Origin: Streptomyces sp. R33
GTDB taxonomy: Bacteria > Actinomycetota > Actinomycetes > Streptomycetales > Streptomycetaceae
Assembly: GCF_041200175.1 (NCBI RefSeq)
Contig: NZ_CP165727.1
Location: 682,001 to 746,000, forward strand
Reading direction: 5' to 3'
Length of the DNA stretch: 64,000 nt
Of this stretch, positions 11,456 to 25,516 are shown one piece after another. Within the stretch, counting starts at the first letter, position 1. Each line of letters opens with the position of its first letter. Made by a program: the position numbers and the translations under genes. The notes beneath the pieces are model-generated. The model ran no database searches, was not told where the DNA came from, and saw only the letters and a program-made list of their open reading frames with translations.

Positions 11456-11853
11456 CCCTCGAACGTCCGGGGTCGAGGTGCTGCTCACGCGCGCGGGAGA
11501 TGTCGCGACCGGCCGCCGTGAGCGGCCGGAACGGCATCCGTGCGCTGTTCCTGAGGCCGCCGGAGCCGGAGCGCTGACCCGGGACTCCGCCGCAGCTGCC
11601 CAGTCGACCCAAGCGGACCCCCTGGCCTGAACGTTGGCGCGTGGGAGACAGCGTGGCCGCAGCGCCGTCCCGCGGCTTTGCCAGGTGTTTACTGAAGTTG
11701 TGTCAGGCCGGACAGTGCTGGGGCGTCTGGTTGCTCACAGGCCCTGAAAGCGTGCACACTTGCGCGAATTCCGGCCGGGCGCAGCGTCACACCCCACTGC
11801 CCACCTGCATGGCATGCGCCGCGTCGGCCATCAGCAAGCCAACGGGAGCAAGG
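11456..11853. other. Gap upstream of sigma factor gene, no supported gene
   Basis: About 400 bases with GC-rich open frames but no protein I recognise. Weak clues are an in-frame extension of the sigma factor gene back to 11641 with alternative starts at 11641 and 11809. A promoter for the sigma factor gene probably lies here, but no convincing -35/-10 pair can be named. Confidence 0.4.
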
Positions 11854-13485
11854 TTGAGCACATCGGGAACTGCCCGCCAGCAGGACCTCCACGGCCTCAG
11901 CGACGCACAGCTCTGCGCGCTGCTCCGCGAGCGGGACTCGGCGCCAGGTGCCGATCTCAGCGACGTGATGGGCGAGGTGTTCGCCCGTCACCACGACGCC
12001 GTACTCGCCTACGCCCGTACCTGCTGCCGCGACCTGGCCACCGCCGGTGACCTCGCGGCCGAGGCCTTCGCCCGCACCTATCGGGCGGTCGCCTGGGGTG
12101 CCGGCCCCGAGTACGCCTGGCGGCCGTACCTGCTGACCTGCGTGCGCCGGGTGGCAGCCGAATGGGCACGCCGCGGTGCCCGCACACAGCTGTCGGACGA
12201 CTTCGACACGTGGGCGGCCGGCCTGTCCGACGATCAGGACGTCGAGGGCGCCGCGCTGTTGGCGGAGGAGGGCTCGCTGGTTCTGCGGGCGTTCCGGTCG
12301 CTGCCGGAGCGCTGGCAGGCCGTGCTGTGGCACGCGGTCGTCGAACACGAGCCCGCGGCCGAGACCGCCCGGCGCCTCGGGATTTCGGCGGGTGGCGTCG
12401 GTTCCCTGGCGGCGCGCGCCCGGGAGGGCCTGCGCGAGGCGTACCTGCGCGCCCACCTGGACCAGAGCGCGAGCGACGAGTGCCGGCACTACGGCGGCCA
12501 GCTCGCCGCCGCGCTCCGCCGACCGGGCAAGCGCGTCACACGGGACCTGGGACGGCACCTGCAGGCGTGCGAGGCCTGCGGACGGGCCGAGCGTGATCTG
12601 CGGGCGGTCAACAGCCGGCTGGGCGCGCTGCTGCCGGCCGGAATCCTGCTGTGGCATCCCGCCTCCTCCGCGCTGTCCACCGGTGCGCACGGCGCCCACC
12701 ACCTGGCAGCGGCCAAGCTGGCGGGGATCAAGGTGGCCGCAGCGCGGTTCGGCGCTGCGAAGTGGACCGCGGCGGCGGCCGTCGCGGGTACGACGGTGAC
12801 CGCGTTCGCCCTGCTGCCCGCCGAGGACCGGCCCGAGCGGGCCGCCCCGACGCCCACGGTCGCGAGCCCGAACCCGAGCTCGGAGCCGAACCCGTACCTG
12901 CTGCCGTCCCCGACGGACTCGACGCCACCGATCGTGTCCATCGGCGCCCCCATGTCGGCCGTCGCCGTCCCATCGGCCCCCGCGACTCCCACGCCGTCCT
13001 CCGCTTCGCCCTCGCCGGCCCCCTCCCCCACCGGTCTGCCGTTGGTCAACACCGGCTCGGGGCTGTGCGTCGGCTTCGCCGGCAGCGGTTCCGAAGGACC
13101 GTTGAAGCTCCAGCCGTGCACCGGCGACGCCTCCCAGGGCTGGCAGCGCCTGCCGGCCGGCCAGGGCACGTACCAGTTCCGGAACACGGGCACCGGTACC
13201 TGCCTCGACGGAACCGCCGCCGGCGGAAACGTCGTCGACGTCACCCTTCGCACCTGCCGCTCCGGCACCGGCCGTGAGACGCAGCTCTGGAGGTCCGAAC
13301 CGGCCGGACGATCCGGCGCCTTCCGGCTCTGGTTCGTGCCACCGGTCCCGAAGAGCGACTACGCCGATCACCTGCTGGGCCCGCGGAACTGGCCGAAGTC
13401 CGATCCTCCGCGCCAAGGTTCGGCCCTGGTACAGCTGCCCAACTACTACAACTCGGTCAATTTCCTCTTCACTCTCGGAAGCTGA
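11854..13485 (+). CDS. ECF sigma factor with zinc-finger, membrane segment and C-terminal ricin-type lectin domain
   Basis: 543 residues from the TTG at 11854, chosen because GGGAG ends five bases before it; upstream in-frame starts give extra residues without sigma similarity. Order of parts: sigma region 2 (about 37-105, GEVFARHHDAVLAYARTCC), sigma region 4 (about 148-205, LPERWQAVLWHAVVEHEP then a helix-turn-helix), a zinc-finger-like HLQACEACG (H-x3-C-x2-C as in ZAS anti-sigma factors, about 233-240), one membrane helix (KWTAAAAVAGTTVTAFALL, about 305), a Pro/Ser/Thr-rich linker, and a ricin B-like domain (NTGSGLCVGFAGS, GTGTCLDGTAAGG). The layout suggests a membrane-tethered sigma factor that senses an extracellular sugar or glycan. 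Release mechanism and regulon are unknown. Confidence 0.85.
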   Translation: MSTSGTARQQDLHGLSDAQLCALLRERDSAPGADLSDVMGEVFARHHDAVLAYARTCCRDLATAGDLAAEAFARTYRAVAWGAGPEYAWRPYLLTCVRRVAAEWARRGARTQLSDDFDTWAAGLSDDQDVEGAALLAEEGSLVLRAFRSLPERWQAVLWHAVVEHEPAAETARRLGISAGGVGSLAARAREGLREAYLRAHLDQSASDECRHYGGQLAAALRRPGKRVTRDLGRHLQACEACGRAERDLRAVNSRLGALLPAGILLWHPASSALSTGAHGAHHLAAAKLAGIKVAAARFGAAKWTAAAAVAGTTVTAFALLPAEDRPERAAPTPTVASPNPSSEPNPYLLPSPTDSTPPIVSIGAPMSAVAVPSAPATPTPSSASPSPAPSPTGLPLVNTGSGLCVGFAGSGSEGPLKLQPCTGDASQGWQRLPAGQGTYQFRNTGTGTCLDGTAAGGNVVDVTLRTCRSGTGRETQLWRSEPAGRSGAFRLWFVPPVPKSDYADHLLGPRNWPKSDPPRQGSALVQLPNYYNSVNFLFTLGS

Positions 13486-18364: not shown

Positions 18365-19432
18365 GTGCGAACTCCCCTTTCATGGCTTGCCGGCAGGTAC
18401 TCGCTCGGAGCGAGGAGCGTCAGACTGGCCGCACTGGGTTCGGTCGTGGCAAGTATCGCGATCATCGTGACCGGTGGAATCGTCCGCGTCACCGGCTCCG
18501 GTCTCGGCTGCACCGATTGGCCCATGTGCACGGGAGAGACACTGGCCCCCACTGCGGAAATGGGAGTGCACGGCGCCATCGAATTCGGGAACCGGCTCCT
18601 GACCGGGGCGCTGTGCGCGGTGGTGGGCTGGGTCATCATTACCGCGCGCCTCCAGGAAAGGCCGATGCCCGCGGTCCTGCGCGGAGGCTGGGCGCAGTTC
18701 TGGATCGTCGTGCTGAACGCGGTCGTCGGCGGAGTGACCGTGTGGATGCGGCTGAGCCCGTACATCGTCGCCGCGCACTTCCTCGCCGCCACGCTGCTGC
18801 TCACCGCCGCGGTGTACACCTGGCACGCGGCGTACGCCGGCGCCGACGGCGCTGCGGATGGCGCGGGTGACGTGGGTGGCGTGGGTAGCGGAAGTGATGA
18901 GAACAGCAAGGGCGGCGAGGTCGGCCGGCCCGGCGCACCGTCCCCGCTCGCGCCGCGGTCCGCCGCGCGGATCCGGTCGCTGTCGGCGTCCCTGGTCGCG
19001 GTGACGGCCGTGCTGGTCGTCGTGGGCACGCTCGCCACCGGTTCCGGACCGCACGCGGGTGACTCCTCCGACGTTCCGCGCATGCCCTTCAACTGGACGG
19101 CCGTGACGGTGGTCCACGGCGTGCTGGCCGTGGCGGTCCTGGTCCTGGCCGGAGTATTGCTGTCCGCGCTGCCCCGGGACGGCTTCGGTGCCGCGCGCCG
19201 CAAGGCCGCCGCCTTCCTCGCCGTGCTCCTGGGTCAGGGCGTCGTGGGGCTCGTGCAGTCACTGACGGCCCTGCCCTCGCTCGTCGTGATGCTCCACCTG
19301 CTGGGTTCGGCGCTCGTGTGGACGGGAGTACTTCAGGTGCACTTCACGGTCAAGAGGGCCTCTTTCGGTCATTCCGGCCCGCCGGACGGTGCACCGCTGC
19401 CGCGTGCGCGGGGCGCCGCTACGCACGCCTGA
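18365..19432 (+). CDS. ctaA: Heme A synthase, COX15/CtaA family
   Basis: 355 residues from the GTG at 18365. It has eight hydrophobic helices in two four-helix halves, with the conserved GGIVRVTGSGLGCTDWPMCTG in the first half, then EFGNRLLTG, AAHFLAATLLLTAAVYTWHA, and VVHGVLAVAVLVLAG and MLHLLGSALVW in the second. The two heme-ligand His pairs are visible. The family oxidises heme O to heme A for aa3 oxidase. A Gly/Asp/Ser-rich insert of about 35 residues separates the halves. The gene ends 176 bases before the lasso precursor; whether it is linked to that cluster is unclear, and no ctaB or oxidase genes are beside it. Confidence 0.88.
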   Translation: MRTPLSWLAGRYSLGARSVRLAALGSVVASIAIIVTGGIVRVTGSGLGCTDWPMCTGETLAPTAEMGVHGAIEFGNRLLTGALCAVVGWVIITARLQERPMPAVLRGGWAQFWIVVLNAVVGGVTVWMRLSPYIVAAHFLAATLLLTAAVYTWHAAYAGADGAADGAGDVGGVGSGSDENSKGGEVGRPGAPSPLAPRSAARIRSLSASLVAVTAVLVVVGTLATGSGPHAGDSSDVPRMPFNWTAVTVVHGVLAVAVLVLAGVLLSALPRDGFGAARRKAAAFLAVLLGQGVVGLVQSLTALPSLVVMLHLLGSALVWTGVLQVHFTVKRASFGHSGPPDGAPLPRARGAATHA

Positions 19433-19608: not shown

Positions 19609-19731
19609 ATGAACGACCACGAGGTTGTCGAGTACGAGGCGCCCGAAATGCTGCCCATCGGCGAGTTCTCCGAGCTCACGATGTGGTACGGCTGGGCCAG
19701 CAACGACGGTGAGGGCACGGCGATCATCTGA
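19609..19731 (+). CDS. Lasso peptide precursor
   Basis: 40 residues, found by reading the gap before the cyclase. The leader carries the actinobacterial lasso signature YEAPEMLPIGEF (Y-x-x-P, residues 9-20) that the RRE protein recognises, and Thr24 at the -2 position of the cut site in ELTM. The predicted core is residues 26-40, WYGWASNDGEGTAII. Trp1 to Asp8 would form an eight-residue macrolactam ring, and the tail is seven residues. The x-x-G-x-A-x-N-D ring pattern recalls citrulassin (from memory). The core offers Trp1, Tyr2 and Trp4 to a prenyltransferase and Asp8 to a hydroxylase. Confidence 0.9.
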   Translation: MNDHEVVEYEAPEMLPIGEFSELTMWYGWASNDGEGTAII

Positions 19732-19767
19732 TCGCCGCGCGCAAATTCAGTTGGCTAGGGGGATTCC

Positions 19768-21651
19768 TTGGGTGCGTCATGGTTCATCGCTTTCCCGGAG
19801 AACGTCGATGACGCATTTCCGGTCTCCACCGGGCCGCCTGACAACACCGAAGTGCTGACGTACGCCTCGGGCCGGACATGGGTGGTCGCGAACCGCTCCC
19901 ATTCCCGCCTGATTGCCGCGGAAGCCGGCGCCAGACGCCTCGCGCTGTTCGGCGAGACGAGCATCGACGCGGGGCGTCTGGCCCGCCTGCTGGCGCAGCA
20001 CGACCGAGCCGCCGACCTGATGGCCGCCGCGCACGAGATCCCGGGCAGCTTCCACATCCTCCACACCGACGGCCGCTCCACCCACATCCAGGGCAGCGCC
20101 TCGGGCCTGCGCCAGGTGTTCTACACCCGTCGCCAGGACGGCTCGTACGCCGCATCCGACTCGGCCGAACCACTGGCCCGGCTGAGCGGTGCCACGCCGC
20201 GCATCGAGATGGTCGCCTGGGGGATGCTGCACCCGGGATTCGACTACGGGCTGACCCACGGCACCTACTGGCACGGGGTCCACCGGCTCCCCGCCGACCA
20301 GCGGCTGCGCATGACCGCCGACCGGGTCGAGGCCGGCACCTGGTGGCATCCCCCGGCGCCGGAGCTGTCGGTCGCCGACGGCGCACCGAGGTTACGGGCC
20401 GCGCTGGAGGAGGCGGTGGCCGTCCGGCTCGCCACGGCGCGCGGCCTCTCGGCGGACCTGTCGGGCGGCATGGACTCCACGTCCCTCTGCTTCCTCCTGG
20501 CCGGCCAGGGTGCCCGGTTCCGGTCCTTCGTCGAGCAGACCGTCGATCCCAACCACGACGACGCCCACTGGGCGCAGATCGCCGCCCGGGAGATCGACCG
20601 GCCCCTGACGGTCCTCGGCCCCGAGGACGTCCCGGGTCCGTACGACGGCATCTGGGAACCGGGCCGGGGACTCGTCCAGGACGTCCCCTACGGACTGGGC
20701 GAGCCGTACACCCTCATCCGGAACCGCGCGCGGAAGACCGCGATGTCCACGATCTTCGCCGCCACCGGCTCCGACGTGCACATCGGCGGATTCGGCGGGG
20801 ACGAACTGTTCACCATCGCGCCGTCGTACTTCGGCGACCTCTACGCTCGCGCACCCCTGCGGGCGGTCCGCGGCATCCGCGACCTGGCCCGGCTGAGGCG
20901 CTGGAGCCTGCCCTCCGTCCTGCGCGCGCTGGCCCGGCAACAGACGTACCAGGGCTGGTTCGAGGAACAGCTGGGCAGTCTGCACCTGCCCCGGCCGGAC
21001 GTCCTGGGCCCCGGCCTGAGCTGGGGTCCGCAGGTCCGCGTGACCCCGTGGTCGACACCCGCCAACGTCGAGGCCGTCCGCGCGGTCGCCGCCGCCGGCG
21101 ATGCCGGCCGGACACCGCAGGCGGACTCCCGCTCGGTGCACACCAGCATCGCGGGACACCGCATCGGCGGACAACGGCTCGGCCCGCTGCGCGCGCTGAT
21201 GGAGCACCAGGGGATCACCCTCTCGCTGCCGTACATGGACGACGCGGTACTGGAAGCCGCCCTGTCGGTCTCGCGGGCCGAGGCGCTGCCGGGCACCGGG
21301 TTCAAGCCGGTCCTGAAGGCCGCCATGCGGGTGGACGCGACGCCGGACTCCCGCGCGGGCGCGCTCTCCCGCTCCACCAAGGGCGAGTTCAGCATGTCGG
21401 TGCACCGCGGCCTGGCCCGCAACCGCCGCTCGCTCCTCGGCCTGTTCGAGGACTCGCTGCTCGCCGAGCACGGCCTGGTGGACATCGACCGGCTGCGCGC
21501 CACCCTGCGGGACACGATGCGCCCCGAGTACGAGACCAATGCGCTGGAGCTGACCGTCGCCGCCGAGGCCTGGATGCAGGCCGTCGCGGCGGCCCCGGCG
21601 CCGGCGCCCGAACTCCCCCTCCCGAACCGACGACTGGCCTCACCATGCTGA
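19768..21651 (+). CDS. Lasso peptide cyclase (asparagine synthetase-like, C protein)
   Basis: 627 residues from a TTG start at 19768 with AGGGGGA upstream. The C-terminal two thirds are a class B asparagine synthetase fold with the ATP pyrophosphatase loop LSADLSGGMDSTSLCFLLAG (about 225-244) and a second signature FGGDELFTIAPSYFGDLYAR. The N-terminal third is a degenerate glutaminase domain. In lasso biosynthesis this enzyme adenylates the acceptor Asp/Glu side chain and closes the ring onto the core N-terminus. A TTA leucine codon at 20392-20394 (codon 209) is rare in Streptomyces and implies need for the bldA tRNA. It overlaps the RRE gene by seven bases. Confidence 0.93.
   Translation: MGASWFIAFPENVDDAFPVSTGPPDNTEVLTYASGRTWVVANRSHSRLIAAEAGARRLALFGETSIDAGRLARLLAQHDRAADLMAAAHEIPGSFHILHTDGRSTHIQGSASGLRQVFYTRRQDGSYAASDSAEPLARLSGATPRIEMVAWGMLHPGFDYGLTHGTYWHGVHRLPADQRLRMTADRVEAGTWWHPPAPELSVADGAPRLRAALEEAVAVRLATARGLSADLSGGMDSTSLCFLLAGQGARFRSFVEQTVDPNHDDAHWAQIAAREIDRPLTVLGPEDVPGPYDGIWEPGRGLVQDVPYGLGEPYTLIRNRARKTAMSTIFAATGSDVHIGGFGGDELFTIAPSYFGDLYARAPLRAVRGIRDLARLRRWSLPSVLRALARQQTYQGWFEEQLGSLHLPRPDVLGPGLSWGPQVRVTPWSTPANVEAVRAVAAAGDAGRTPQADSRSVHTSIAGHRIGGQRLGPLRALMEHQGITLSLPYMDDAVLEAALSVSRAEALPGTGFKPVLKAAMRVDATPDSRAGALSRSTKGEFSMSVHRGLARNRRSLLGLFEDSLLAEHGLVDIDRLRATLRDTMRPEYETNALELTVAAEAWMQAVAAAPAPAPELPLPNRRLASPC
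20392..20394 (+). promoter_or_regulatory. TTA leucine codon in lasso cyclase (bldA-dependent control point)
   Basis: In frame with the cyclase (A-P-R-Leu-R context). In Streptomyces TTA codons are confined to genes read late in development because only the bldA tRNA decodes them. Production of the lasso peptide would then depend on bldA. This is inference from codon identity. Confidence 0.7.
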
Positions 21652-21896
21652 AGATCTCCCCTCACGTCGTACTCACCAGGACCGAGGACGCCGCGGTTCT
21701 CCTGGACAAGAAGTCCGGCACGTACTTCCGTATCAATCCCATGGGGACGGCGGTGTTCGAGATGCTCGCCGCCGGACGCACCCAGGACGAGGTCGTGAGC
21801 GAGCTGTCCGCACGCCACCCGGCGGCTGCCGACCGGATACCGGGCGACGTCGCGAAGCTGATCGACACCATGCGGCGCGCGAAGGTGCTGGTGTGA
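21645..21896 (+). CDS. Lasso peptide RRE protein (PqqD-like, B1)
   Basis: 83 residues, starting inside the last codons of the cyclase gene. The sequence VVLTRTEDAAVLLDKKSGTY, FRINPMGTAVFEMLAAG and EVVSELSARHP matches the PqqD-like RiPP recognition element fold. It binds the YxxP leader and presents the precursor to the B2 peptidase. The next gene starts two bases later, so B1 and B2 are separate proteins here as in other actinobacterial lasso clusters. Confidence 0.92.
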   Translation: MLKISPHVVLTRTEDAAVLLDKKSGTYFRINPMGTAVFEMLAAGRTQDEVVSELSARHPAAADRIPGDVAKLIDTMRRAKVLV

Positions 21897-21897
21897 C

Positions 21898-22359
21898 GTG
21901 ACGCTGCCCATGACCCTGGAGCCACGCGCCCGGCTGCCCCTGCGCCGGCGGCCCCTGCCGATGCTGGCCGTCGTCGCGAGCCGCCTCCTGACCCGGCTGA
22001 GCCCGCACGCGTTGGAGCGGGTGCTGTGGCGGGCCAGCGGCGGCGCCCGCCCCGCCACCCACGCCGAGGCACTGGCCGCGCGCAGCGACGTCGTCTCCGT
22101 CAGCCGTCGCGCCGCCGGACCGTACTGCCTGGAACGCTCGATCGCCGCGGCCCTGCTGGCCCGAATGCGCGGCAGCTGGCCCGACTGGGTCTCCGGCGTC
22201 AGCCTGATGCCGTTCGCCGCGCACGCGTGGATCGAGGTGGAGGGCCGGGCGGTCGGCGAGTCCATGCGGCTGGACGCCTTCCACAAGAACATCGTCGTCT
22301 CCCGCGCCCCCGGCACGGAGCGGAGCCGCCGGCGAGACGAGCACACCTCCGAGAGTTGA
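21898..22359 (+). CDS. Lasso leader peptidase (transglutaminase-like, B2)
   Basis: 153 residues from a GTG at 21898. The catalytic Cys is in GPYCLERSIAAALLARMRG, the His in PFAAHAWIEVEG, and the Asp in SMRLDAF, matching the Cys-His-Asp triad of B2 proteins. It removes the leader after Met25 to free Trp1 for ring closure. The C-terminus is Arg/Glu-rich. It ends 14 bases before the oxygenase gene. Confidence 0.9.
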   Translation: MTLPMTLEPRARLPLRRRPLPMLAVVASRLLTRLSPHALERVLWRASGGARPATHAEALAARSDVVSVSRRAAGPYCLERSIAAALLARMRGSWPDWVSGVSLMPFAAHAWIEVEGRAVGESMRLDAFHKNIVVSRAPGTERSRRRDEHTSES

Positions 22360-22373
22360 GACGGACGGACACC

Positions 22374-23318
22374 ATGGACACCAAGCGCACAGTGGAGCAA
22401 CTGGCGAGCCGGGGATACGCCCTGGTACCCGGCTTCGTGACGGGCGAGGCCCTCGCGCGGGCGCAGGCCGCGATCGACACCTACTTCCCCGACCCGGAGG
22501 CGAGCGGGAGCACCCCCGAGGAGGTCAACGCCCTCAAGCACGCGGTCCCGTTCCCCTTCACCAGCAACGACCTGAACCGGCACGCACTGGACACCCGGGT
22601 CATCGACGTCGTCGAGGAGCTGCTCGGCACCGACGACCTGCGGCTGACGAGCTCCTTCATCCAGGCCAAGTACGGCACGGCCTACGGAGAGAGCCGGGAC
22701 CAGACCCTGCACAACGACGCCTGGGCGGCCAGCAGCCTGGTGCACCCGCGGGCGGACGGCGTCTACCAGCGCGTGTACGGCATCCTCTACCTCACCGACG
22801 TGACCGTGGACACCGCGCCCACCTACGTCGTCGACCGCGCCGCACACCTCGGGCTTCCCCTGCTGACCGACGCGGGCAAGGGCTCGTACGACAAGGCGGA
22901 GTATCCCGGACTGTACGAGCAGGAGCGGCCCGTGGAGGCCGAGGCCGGCTCGCTCCTGCTGTTCGTCGGCGACATCGTCCACCGGGGGTCGGCCTACCAC
23001 GAACGGCTCGGACGGCGGCTCGCACTCTTCTTCAACATGCACGGTGCGCAGGCTCGTTGGACGGACAAGCACCTGTGGTCAATGCGGCCGGCCCACCCGA
23101 ACTGGAACACCCTGCACGAGCTCATGGTCGAACTGGACCCGCGCCAGCGCCACCTCCTGGGCTTCCCGCCCCCCGGGGACGACTACTGGACCGACGAGAC
23201 GATCGGGCACCTGGAGCGGATGTACCCCGGGATCGACTCCAAGCCCTACCTGCCGCCGACCCCGGCCCAGGTCCCGGCCCAGGTCCCGGCTCAGGTCCCG
23301 GCACCGGTCGTCCCGTGA
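22374..23318 (+). CDS. Phytanoyl-CoA dioxygenase-family Fe(II)/2-oxoglutarate oxygenase in lasso cluster
   Basis: 314 residues. The iron facial triad is visible as TLHNDAW (H-x-D, about 113-115) and the distal His in IVHRGSAYHE, followed by RLALFFN as the 2-oxoglutarate-binding Arg region. The PhyH family hydroxylates small molecules and peptidyl residues. Position in the lasso operon (14 bases after B2, overlapping the prenyltransferase) suggests it acts on the lasso peptide, for example beta-hydroxylation of Asp8 or Asn7, or on a pendant group. The C-terminus is a short Pro-Ala-Gln-Val repeat. Substrate is inference. Confidence 0.85.
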   Translation: MDTKRTVEQLASRGYALVPGFVTGEALARAQAAIDTYFPDPEASGSTPEEVNALKHAVPFPFTSNDLNRHALDTRVIDVVEELLGTDDLRLTSSFIQAKYGTAYGESRDQTLHNDAWAASSLVHPRADGVYQRVYGILYLTDVTVDTAPTYVVDRAAHLGLPLLTDAGKGSYDKAEYPGLYEQERPVEAEAGSLLLFVGDIVHRGSAYHERLGRRLALFFNMHGAQARWTDKHLWSMRPAHPNWNTLHELMVELDPRQRHLLGFPPPGDDYWTDETIGHLERMYPGIDSKPYLPPTPAQVPAQVPAQVPAPVVP

Positions 23319-24445
23319 CGACGGAGCGGTCCGGGTACGCGGGACTGGCCGTCGACGGGCTGCGCTACCTCGGAGAGGTACTGGAACTGGGGCGCGGCTT
23401 CGACGCGGCGGCCGAGGAGTCCGTCCGCACCCTCTTCGACGGCTGGGGCCACCGGGTCTCGCGGGACACCGACGGCGGCGGGACCAGGCAGGACGCCGTG
23501 TCGACCGCCCCGTTCGAGTACTCGCTGGTGCTGCGGGAGGACCGCGTCGACGTACGGCTGTTCTTCCGGCCGCTCCCCGAGCGGGGACCGGCCACGGCGG
23601 ACGGGAGCTGGGAACGCGGCGGGCGGACGCTGGCCGAGCTGGAACGCCGGGGCGTCGCGCGCCTGGAGCGGACACGGGAGGTCGCCGATCTGTTCCGGCC
23701 GCGCAGCGAGCGGGCGGCGTTCGGGATGTGTCTGGCGGCTTCGGTCCGCGCCTCGGGCATCGCCCGCCCCAAGGTGTACTTCGACACGCTGGCGGCGGGC
23801 ACCGAACAGAGCCGGCAGATGGTCGGGACCGCGCTCGACCGGCTCGGCCAGGGCGGGGCGTGGAGCTGGCTGCGGCGCCACGACCCACAGGGCATCGCGC
23901 ACCTGATGCCGGCCTTCTTCGCGCTCGACGTGGACGAGTCTCCGCACGCCCGGATCAAGTTCTACACCACGGTCGCGGAACGCTCGACGGCCGAACTCGA
24001 AGCACGGCTGGCCCCTTTGGGCCACGGTGCAGCGGCTGCCGCGGCCGGCCTGGTCGCGGACGCCGCCCCGCAGGGCGGGGCGGCGCTGGACACGCCGGGG
24101 GTGCGCCCGACCCTGTGCTGGAGCATGACCTCGCGCGACGGGACACGGCCGGACGACGCCACGCTGTACCTGCCGTTCAACCTGTACGCCCCGCAGCAGC
24201 AGGAGACCCACAGGCGGCTGCGCAGGAGGCTCAACCCCGTGCTCCTGGCCCGGGTGGGGCGGCTGGTGAGCGACCACGCCGCGGCCGTGGACGGGCGGGC
24301 GAACCCGTTCCACTGGGCGGCGGCCAAGCTGCTCCACGGCGGAGGGGCCCTCACCCTCTACACCTCGGCCGCGGCGGTGGAGGCGGCCCGGACGGCCCGG
24401 ACCCCGGCGCGCCCCCGCCCCGACACCCTTCCGGTCGCGACGTAG
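23315..24445 (+). CDS. Aromatic prenyltransferase, ABBA/DMATS-type, in lasso cluster
   Basis: 376 residues from a GTG overlapping the oxygenase stop (GTGA). Signature strands of indole prenyltransferases are readable: FEYSLVLREDRVDVRLFFRP, ARPKVYFDTLAAG, ARIKFYTTVAERS, YLPFNLYAPQQQ, together with repeated Arg/Lys/Tyr residues for binding the prenyl diphosphate. Family members transfer dimethylallyl or geranyl groups to Trp, Tyr or small aromatics. In this operon the obvious target is Trp1, Tyr2 or Trp4 of the core. It is the last gene of the operon; a GC-rich region follows. Confidence 0.88.
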   Translation: MTTERSGYAGLAVDGLRYLGEVLELGRGFDAAAEESVRTLFDGWGHRVSRDTDGGGTRQDAVSTAPFEYSLVLREDRVDVRLFFRPLPERGPATADGSWERGGRTLAELERRGVARLERTREVADLFRPRSERAAFGMCLAASVRASGIARPKVYFDTLAAGTEQSRQMVGTALDRLGQGGAWSWLRRHDPQGIAHLMPAFFALDVDESPHARIKFYTTVAERSTAELEARLAPLGHGAAAAAAGLVADAAPQGGAALDTPGVRPTLCWSMTSRDGTRPDDATLYLPFNLYAPQQQETHRRLRRRLNPVLLARVGRLVSDHAAAVDGRANPFHWAAAKLLHGGGALTLYTSAAAVEAARTARTPARPRPDTLPVAT

Positions 24446-24853: not shown

Positions 24854-25516
24854 ATGCCAGTGATCTGCGTCGGAGGCATGATCGGCATCGGCAAGACGAG
24901 TGTGGCCGAACTGCTCGCCAAGGAGCTGGGCAGCGAAGTCTTCTACGAGAGCGTGGAAGACAACCCGATCCTGCCGCTCTTCTACACGGCGAGCCCCGAG
25001 GAGATCCAGGCCAAGCGCTACCCCTTCCTGCTCCAGCTGTACTTCCTGCAGACGAGGTTCGCCTCGATCAAGGACGCGTACAAGCAGGGCGACAACGTCC
25101 TCGACCGGTCCATCTACGAGGACTGGTACTTCGCCAAGGTCAACCACGACCTGGGCCGGATCAGCTCCCTCGAGATGCAGGTGTACGAGGGGCTGCTCAA
25201 CGAGATGATGCGCGAAATAGACGGCCTGCCGTACCGCAAGGCACCCGACCTCATGGTCTACCTCAAGGCGGACTTCGAGACGGTGCTGCACCGCATCGGG
25301 CTGCGGGGTCGCAATTTCGAACAGGACGAGAGCCTCGTCGAGTACTACCGGACGCTGTGGTCCGGCTACGACGACTGGGTCCACAAGCACTACTCGGCCA
25401 GCGAAGTCCTCGTCGTCGACATGAACCACACAGACGTGGTGAACAACCCCGAGGACGCGGCCCGCGTGGCCCAGGAGGTCAAGGACGCCCTGGCGGCGGT
25501 CTCGCACCGAGTCTGA
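24854..25516 (+). CDS. Deoxynucleoside kinase (dAK/dGK type)
   Basis: 220 residues. The P-loop is CVGGMIGIGKTSVAELLAKE at the N-terminus, followed by the DRSIYEDWYFAK motif (substrate-binding ERS/DRS), and the LID-type RGRNFEQDES. This matches deoxyadenosine/deoxyguanosine kinases and related salvage kinases. It phosphorylates deoxynucleosides using ATP in the cytosol. GGAG lies nine bases before the ATG. Confidence 0.88.
   Translation: MPVICVGGMIGIGKTSVAELLAKELGSEVFYESVEDNPILPLFYTASPEEIQAKRYPFLLQLYFLQTRFASIKDAYKQGDNVLDRSIYEDWYFAKVNHDLGRISSLEMQVYEGLLNEMMREIDGLPYRKAPDLMVYLKADFETVLHRIGLRGRNFEQDESLVEYYRTLWSGYDDWVHKHYSASEVLVVDMNHTDVVNNPEDAARVAQEVKDALAAVSHRV

What the first reader, a model, noticed from the sequence alone, without database searches (positions are those of the whole stretch)
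19609..24445. Lasso peptide cluster with both a prenyltransferase and a PhyH-type oxygenase
The core set (precursor, C, B1, B2) is followed without a break by a phytanoyl-CoA-type Fe/2OG oxygenase and an ABBA/DMATS-type aromatic prenyltransferase (overlaps and gaps of at most 36 bases). The core WYGWASNDGEGTAII has two Trp and a Tyr within four residues, natural targets for prenylation, and Asp8 as ring acceptor and possible hydroxylation site. A hydroxylated, prenylated lasso peptide would be a new combination as far as I know, although I cannot rule out that a lasso peptide with a WYGWA-type core has already been published. Seen: gene order, motifs, precursor. Inferred: that both enzymes act on this peptide.
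Basis: partly seen in the sequence, partly recalled or inferred. Interest (0 to 1): 0.95.

Follow-up and report, generated by a model that had tools for sequence, protein, structure and literature searches.

The report
Prenylated lasso peptide gene cluster
This Streptomyces gene set is a close relative of the published collinodin genes and is predicted to make a small lasso-knotted peptide that likely carries an isoprene group and an oxidised tyrosine; that combination is already known, but a second heme-A-synthase-like gene that sits beside the set in six of seven related loci is a new lead that would point to self-protection.

Summary
In detail: precursor, C, B1, B2, a PhyH-type oxygenase and a DMATS-type prenyltransferase form one tight operon at 19609-24445. 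The claimed novelty is not. [quoted passage not shown] 2025) stands in three reference lists. A Streptomyces iakyrus cluster with the same gene order has an oxygenase 295/299 identical to ColD and a core one residue different from this one. I also recall wygwalassin (Harris et al. 2024, text not held) as a dimethylallyl-Trp, didehydro-Tyr lasso peptide. So: a new member of a known kind; the oxygenase more likely oxidises Tyr2 than hydroxylates Asp8. New here: a second COX15/CtaA (heme A synthase) gene, 18365-19432, adjoins the cluster or its remnant in 6 of 7 related loci, in two arrangements, though their flanks otherwise share almost nothing. It forms its own clade and keeps the conserved histidines. 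It may be a self-protection copy; six lasso-free copies among 296 genomes show the link is not exclusive.

The parts
18365..19432 (+). ctaA2: second COX15/CtaA (heme A synthase) homologue, linked to the cluster; role untested
   Evidence: PF02628 1.1e-23; second copy in the genome; beside the cluster or its remnant in 6 of 7 related loci; own clade, conserved His kept
19609..19731 (+). lasso precursor A, core WYGWASNDGEGTAII
   Evidence: translation; NF033521 lasso leader; same core in L002, near-same in L003, L005, L006
19768..21651 (+). lasso cyclase C (asparagine-synthase type)
   Evidence: PF00733; NF033561 230 bits, below its cut-off of 300
21645..21896 (+). B1, PqqD-type leader-binding protein
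   Evidence: PF05402; NF033530 82 bits, cut-off 70
21898..22359 (+). B2, transglutaminase-type leader peptidase
   Evidence: PF13471; NF033537 93 bits, cut-off 33
22374..23318 (+). ColD-type Fe/2OG oxygenase (PhyH superfamily); likely oxidises Tyr2
23315..24445 (+). DMATS-type prenyltransferase; likely adds a C5 unit to a Trp of the core

Best explanation
The window holds a complete lasso peptide gene set with a ColD-type oxygenase and a DMATS-type prenyltransferase, a close relative of the collinodin pathway, and it is predicted to make a lasso peptide that is likely prenylated on a Trp and likely oxidised at Tyr2. Inferred steps: B1 and B2 cut the precursor after Met(-1); C joins the amino group of Trp1 to Asp8 with the tail GEGTAII threaded; the prenyltransferase adds a C5 unit to Trp1 or Trp4, probably on the folded lasso; the oxygenase takes two hydrogens from Tyr2 (didehydro-Tyr), perhaps by way of a hydroxylated stage. 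The product would weigh 1686.77 Da (core minus water, plus C5H8, minus 2 H). The neighbouring ctaA2 travels with the cluster; that it protects the producer is a guess.
For: Gene order and families. Oxygenase 79-81% identical to ColD, which is deposited in complex with collinodins. L003 (S. iakyrus): same gene order, oxygenase 295/299 identical to ColD, core one residue different. Same six genes in 4 of 7 related loci. Core Trp1, Tyr2, Gly3, Trp4 and Asp8 the same in 7 of 7 precursors seen. Collinodin title in three reference lists. PMC13352647 passage: prenylation is among the few changes confirmed to come after the interlocked fold. Masses.
Against: No product was measured. The collinodin and Harris papers were not held: their chemistry is known here from titles and, for wygwalassin, from recall. 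The prenyltransferase is below both curated cut-offs and 22% identical to solved relatives, so donor size and site are open. Tyr2 and both Trp never vary, so sequence cannot say which residue is changed. L004, L007 and L008 are reduced or broken clusters.
Confidence: 0.8

Rival explanations
1. The oxygenase leaves a stable hydroxyl group on Asp8, Tyr2 or a Trp, so the product is a hydroxylated and prenylated lasso peptide.
For: PhyH-superfamily enzymes commonly hydroxylate (established knowledge); iron site intact; the collinodin title says 'iterative oxidative', which could include hydroxylation.
Against: The recalled wygwalassin product carries 2,3-didehydro-Tyr, not a hydroxyl; nothing found here points to Asp8.
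Confidence: 0.2
2. One or both tailoring enzymes act on something other than this peptide, and the product is a plain or singly modified lasso peptide.
For: No product data; L004 keeps the prenyltransferase with no oxygenase, B1 or B2 match, and L007 and L008 keep only prenyltransferase remnants.
Against: Tight operon with overlapping genes; same order in 4 of 7 loci; ColD solved with collinodins.
Confidence: 0.06
3. ctaA2 is only a neighbour: the lasso cluster and an accessory heme A synthase gene share mobile regions and do not work together.
For: ctaA2-like copies occur without lasso genes in 6 of the 8 genomes that carry one in a sample of 296; four of those copies nest inside the lasso-linked clade; L007 has a prenyltransferase remnant and no second copy.
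Against: It adjoins the cluster or its remnant in 6 of 7 loci, upstream in one direction or downstream convergent, while the flanks are otherwise hardly shared apart from the window and L002; two distinct COX15 places occur in 10 of 296 genomes.
Confidence: 0.5

Closest known systems
Collinodin pathway (Shi et al., ACS Catal. 2025; PDB 8xp6 and 8xpf, ColD)
   Same: Oxygenase 79-81% identical to ColD; L003, whose oxygenase is 295/299 identical to ColD, has the same six genes in the same order and a core differing by one residue.
   Different: Core Thr12 instead of Val12 against L003; oxygenase 79.6% and prenyltransferase about 59% identical to L003's. The collinodin core itself was not seen; that it equals L003's is inferred.
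Wygwalassin (Harris et al., Biochemistry 2024; product recalled, paper not held)
   Same: The name suggests a WYGWA core; prenylated Trp and an oxidised Tyr (recalled).
   Different: Its sequence was not compared: the text is not held and the name has 0 hits in the library.
Bacterial Trp prenyltransferases: 5-DMATS of S. coelicolor, PriB, IptA, CymD, MpnD
   Different: About 22% identical; predicted to act on a lasso peptide.
Heme A synthase CtaA (PDB 6a2j) and heme O oxygenase (8aw5)
   Same: ctaA2 passes PF02628 and matches both (2.5e-8, 8.3e-8).
   Different: Own clade on a long branch, about 47-57% identical to the housekeeping-type copies over the N-terminal half; linked to a lasso cluster.

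Membership tests
Lasso peptide gene cluster (A, C, B1, B2) | Precursor with Thr at -2 and Asp or Glu at core position 7-9, next to cyclase, PqqD and transglutaminase-type genes | tested here: met
Lasso peptide gene cluster (A, C, B1, B2) | Threaded macrolactam product | not testable with these tools
   needs MS/NMR
Collinodin/wygwalassin-type oxidised, prenylated lasso cluster | ColD-type oxygenase | tested here: met
Collinodin/wygwalassin-type oxidised, prenylated lasso cluster | DMATS-type prenyltransferase in the operon | tested here: met
Collinodin/wygwalassin-type oxidised, prenylated lasso cluster | WYGWA core and A-C-B1-B2-oxygenase-prenyltransferase order | tested here: met
   met against L003, whose oxygenase is 295/299 ColD; the collinodin record itself was not compared
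Collinodin/wygwalassin-type oxidised, prenylated lasso cluster | Prenyl-Trp and oxidised Tyr in the product | not testable with these tools
   needs LC-MS/MS
COX15/CtaA heme A synthase | PF02628 above cut-off and conserved His (ligands by recall) | tested here: met
   84.2 bits, cut-off 29.9; window H138, H251, H311 and E73 invariant in 46 of 46, H69 in 42 of 46
COX15/CtaA heme A synthase | Heme A formation | not testable with these tools
   needs expression and heme analysis

The most novel reading that the evidence does not exclude
The prenylated, oxidised lasso peptide attacks heme A synthase (CtaA), and so the aa3-type cytochrome oxidase of competitors, and the cluster carries its own resistant CtaA copy (ctaA2). 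That would be a new kind of target for lasso peptides, with the immunity gene next to an operon that holds no transporter gene of its own.
Probability: 0.15. Interest if true: 0.8.

Novelty: new member of a known kind. Interest (0 to 1): 0.36.

Why it matters
The linked ctaA2 gives a concrete, testable guess at what these prenylated lasso peptides do. I did not find it stated: one search for 'lasso peptide' with 'COX15' gave 0 papers, in an open-access library that lacks the two main papers.

Tried and rejected
Novel combination: rejected on ColD/collinodin. ctaA2 as the ordinary housekeeping gene: rejected, since the genome has another copy at 6400306-6401115 and the linked copies form a separate clade. 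ctaA2 as a gene found only with lasso clusters: rejected, since G051, G071, G074, G167, G181 and G227 hold a copy 78-98% identical to it over much of the N-terminal half with no match to the six lasso-cluster proteins at E 1e-3 in stretches of 14-19.5 kb (G071's match is incomplete; clade membership was checked by tree for G051, G074, G167 and G227 only). G175's extra copy (61%) is ambiguous, and G196's two (45% and 55%) are another type.

Limits of the counts: only the best few first-look candidates per genome were scored (for example 7), so single-copy or no-match genomes could hide a weaker one; the 21 multi-match genomes were rescored in full. In one search, 23 of 296 genomes list more than one match: 10 have two distinct places, 12 have one gene reported in pieces, and G254 has one full gene plus two 35-residue fragments (my reading). 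The gene calls were simple and missed some known genes (for example the precursor and the prenyltransferase), so shared flank genes could have been missed.

Other dead ends: plasmid records hold no match to the prenyltransferase; the precursor found nothing convincing among PDB chains (chains under 20 residues are not held); no promoter- or terminator-like sites. Rarity: prenyltransferase in 2 of 392 genus genomes, our own included, and 2 of 199 relatives, our own included (overlapping draw); oxygenase in 2 of 394 family genomes, our own included, the other with a stop inside. Literature: 10 searches; 'wygwalassin', 'WYGWASND', 'prenylated lasso' and 'lasso peptide prenyl' gave 0 papers.

Rows dropped: the tree left out ten repeat fetches of COX15 genes (L011, L015-L021, L029, L030) and holds 46 proteins, not all those found; alignment A1 is the window plus 23 of 25 hits (short P0023 and P0029 left out); alignment A2 is the window plus 21 of 32 hits.

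Full report
What is there. Six genes on the + strand, 19609-24445, in the order precursor A, cyclase C, B1, B2, PhyH-type oxygenase, prenyltransferase, with gaps of at most 36 bases and overlaps of 7 and 4 bases. The precursor has 40 residues; the predicted core after Thr(-2)-Met(-1) is WYGWASNDGEGTAII.

Relatives. A scan of one genome per species (genome contigs) found 7 other loci. Four hold all six genes: L002 (S. katrae), L003 (S. iakyrus), L005 (S. phaeofaciens), L006 (Streptomyces sp. yr375). L004 (Streptantibioticus rubrisoli) is reduced: the leader start, part of C and the prenyltransferase remain, without a convincing B1, B2 or oxygenase match. L007 and L008 hold prenyltransferase remnants. 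Cores: the window's own in L002; WYGWASNDGEGVAII in L003 and L006 and in database protein P0062; WYGWASADGEGDAII in L005; P0063 reads WYGWATNDDEG and on. Trp1, Tyr2, Gly3, Trp4 and Asp8 are the same in all 7 precursors seen. The oxygenase of L003 matches ColD at 295 of 299 residues (four differences, counted on the alignment), so the S. iakyrus cluster is very probably a collinodin-type cluster; this window differs from it by one core residue and has an oxygenase 79.6% identical to it (238 of 299). The family is rare: 2 of 392 genomes of the genus, this one included. The genus is taken as Streptomyces because G062, marked 'same genus', has the contig length (143556) and cluster of L006, and because S. 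katrae DNA is 96.6% identical over 6254 bases.

Literature. The collinodin paper is known to me only by its title in the reference lists of PMC13352647, PMC12971885 and PMC12715784. The Harris et al. 2024 paper is seen only as a reference; that it reports wygwalassin with 5-dimethylallyl-Trp and 2,3-didehydro-Tyr is recalled from its abstract. PMC13352647 (passages, and part 1 of 5 of section 15) says that lasso peptides with Trp prenylation have been found and that prenylation is among the few changes confirmed to come after the interlocked fold has formed. [quoted passage not shown]

Mechanism, marked. Shown: gene order, families, ColD kinship, predicted fold of the prenyltransferase. Inferred from the families: leader removal by B1/B2 and ring closure Trp1-Asp8 by C. 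Inferred from kinship and recall: C5 prenylation of a Trp and loss of two H at Tyr2. Predicted mass 1686.7678 Da. Which Trp is prenylated, and whether the donor is dimethylallyl or longer, cannot be told from the sequence.

The neighbour ctaA2. The gene just upstream (18365-19432) is a COX15/CtaA heme A synthase homologue; it ends 176 bases before the precursor and runs the same way. The genome has two: this one and one at 6400306-6401115. Of the 7 genomes behind L002-L008, 6 have two copies, one of them beside the cluster or its remnant; the seventh (L007) has one copy, not beside the remnant. In L002, L003, L004 and L006 it lies upstream in the same direction; in L005 and L008 it lies downstream and convergent. 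A gene-by-gene comparison of the loci (window 10-34 kb, each locus at most about 17 kb, simple gene calls) shows that the window and L002 share flanks, that L005 and L007 share one gene pair (51-52%), and that one window gene resembles one of L007 (39%); otherwise only the lasso genes and ctaA2 are shared. In a tree of 46 COX15 proteins the linked copies, with four lasso-free ones, form one clade (support 1.000) on a long branch; window E73, H138, H251 and H311 are invariant in 46 of 46 and H69 in 42 of 46.

How exclusive is it. All 296 sampled genomes of the genus have COX15. Ten have two distinct places (my reading of the coordinates). Eight carry a ctaA2-like copy: two (this genome and G062) beside the lasso cluster, six without lasso genes nearby. 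So ctaA2 is strongly tied to this cluster but not exclusive to it; related genomes are not independent, and I give no probability for the association. Lasso-free copies nest inside the linked clade, which would fit loss of the cluster with the gene kept, or repeated association; I cannot tell which. In L058 two FAD-dependent hydroxylase-type genes lie near it, so it may also accompany other metabolite clusters.

Reading. As a claim of a new lasso combination this is by now ordinary: a new member of the collinodin/wygwalassin kind. The ctaA2 link is the part worth following. Self-protection by a second, resistant heme A synthase is my boldest reading (0.15); a respiratory helper, an unusual tailoring role, or a mere neighbour remain open.

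Noticed in passing
window 18365-19432; L002-L006, L008: A second COX15/CtaA gene adjoins the prenylated-lasso cluster or its remnant in 6 of 7 related loci, in two arrangements, and forms its own clade.
   Followed up: yes
L004 6469-9047: Reduced cluster: leader start runs into the cyclase, and the cyclase into the prenyltransferase, with no core and no convincing B1, B2 or oxygenase match.
   Followed up: partly
L007 8001-8579; L008 8001-8497: Prenyltransferase remnants without the lasso genes; L008 keeps a ctaA2 next to it, L007 does not.
   Followed up: partly
L058 7685-12541: A lasso-free ctaA2-clade gene lies between two FAD-binding hydroxylase-type genes, one with an aromatic-ring hydroxylase C-terminal domain.
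   Followed up: no
window 11641-13485: One open frame joins sigma-70 regions 2 and 4 to a ricin-type lectin domain.
   Followed up: no
window 24854-25516: Deoxynucleoside kinase (PF01712) downstream of the operon, 100% identical in protein to S. katrae (L002) and not matched in L003-L008, so probably only a neighbour.
   Followed up: partly
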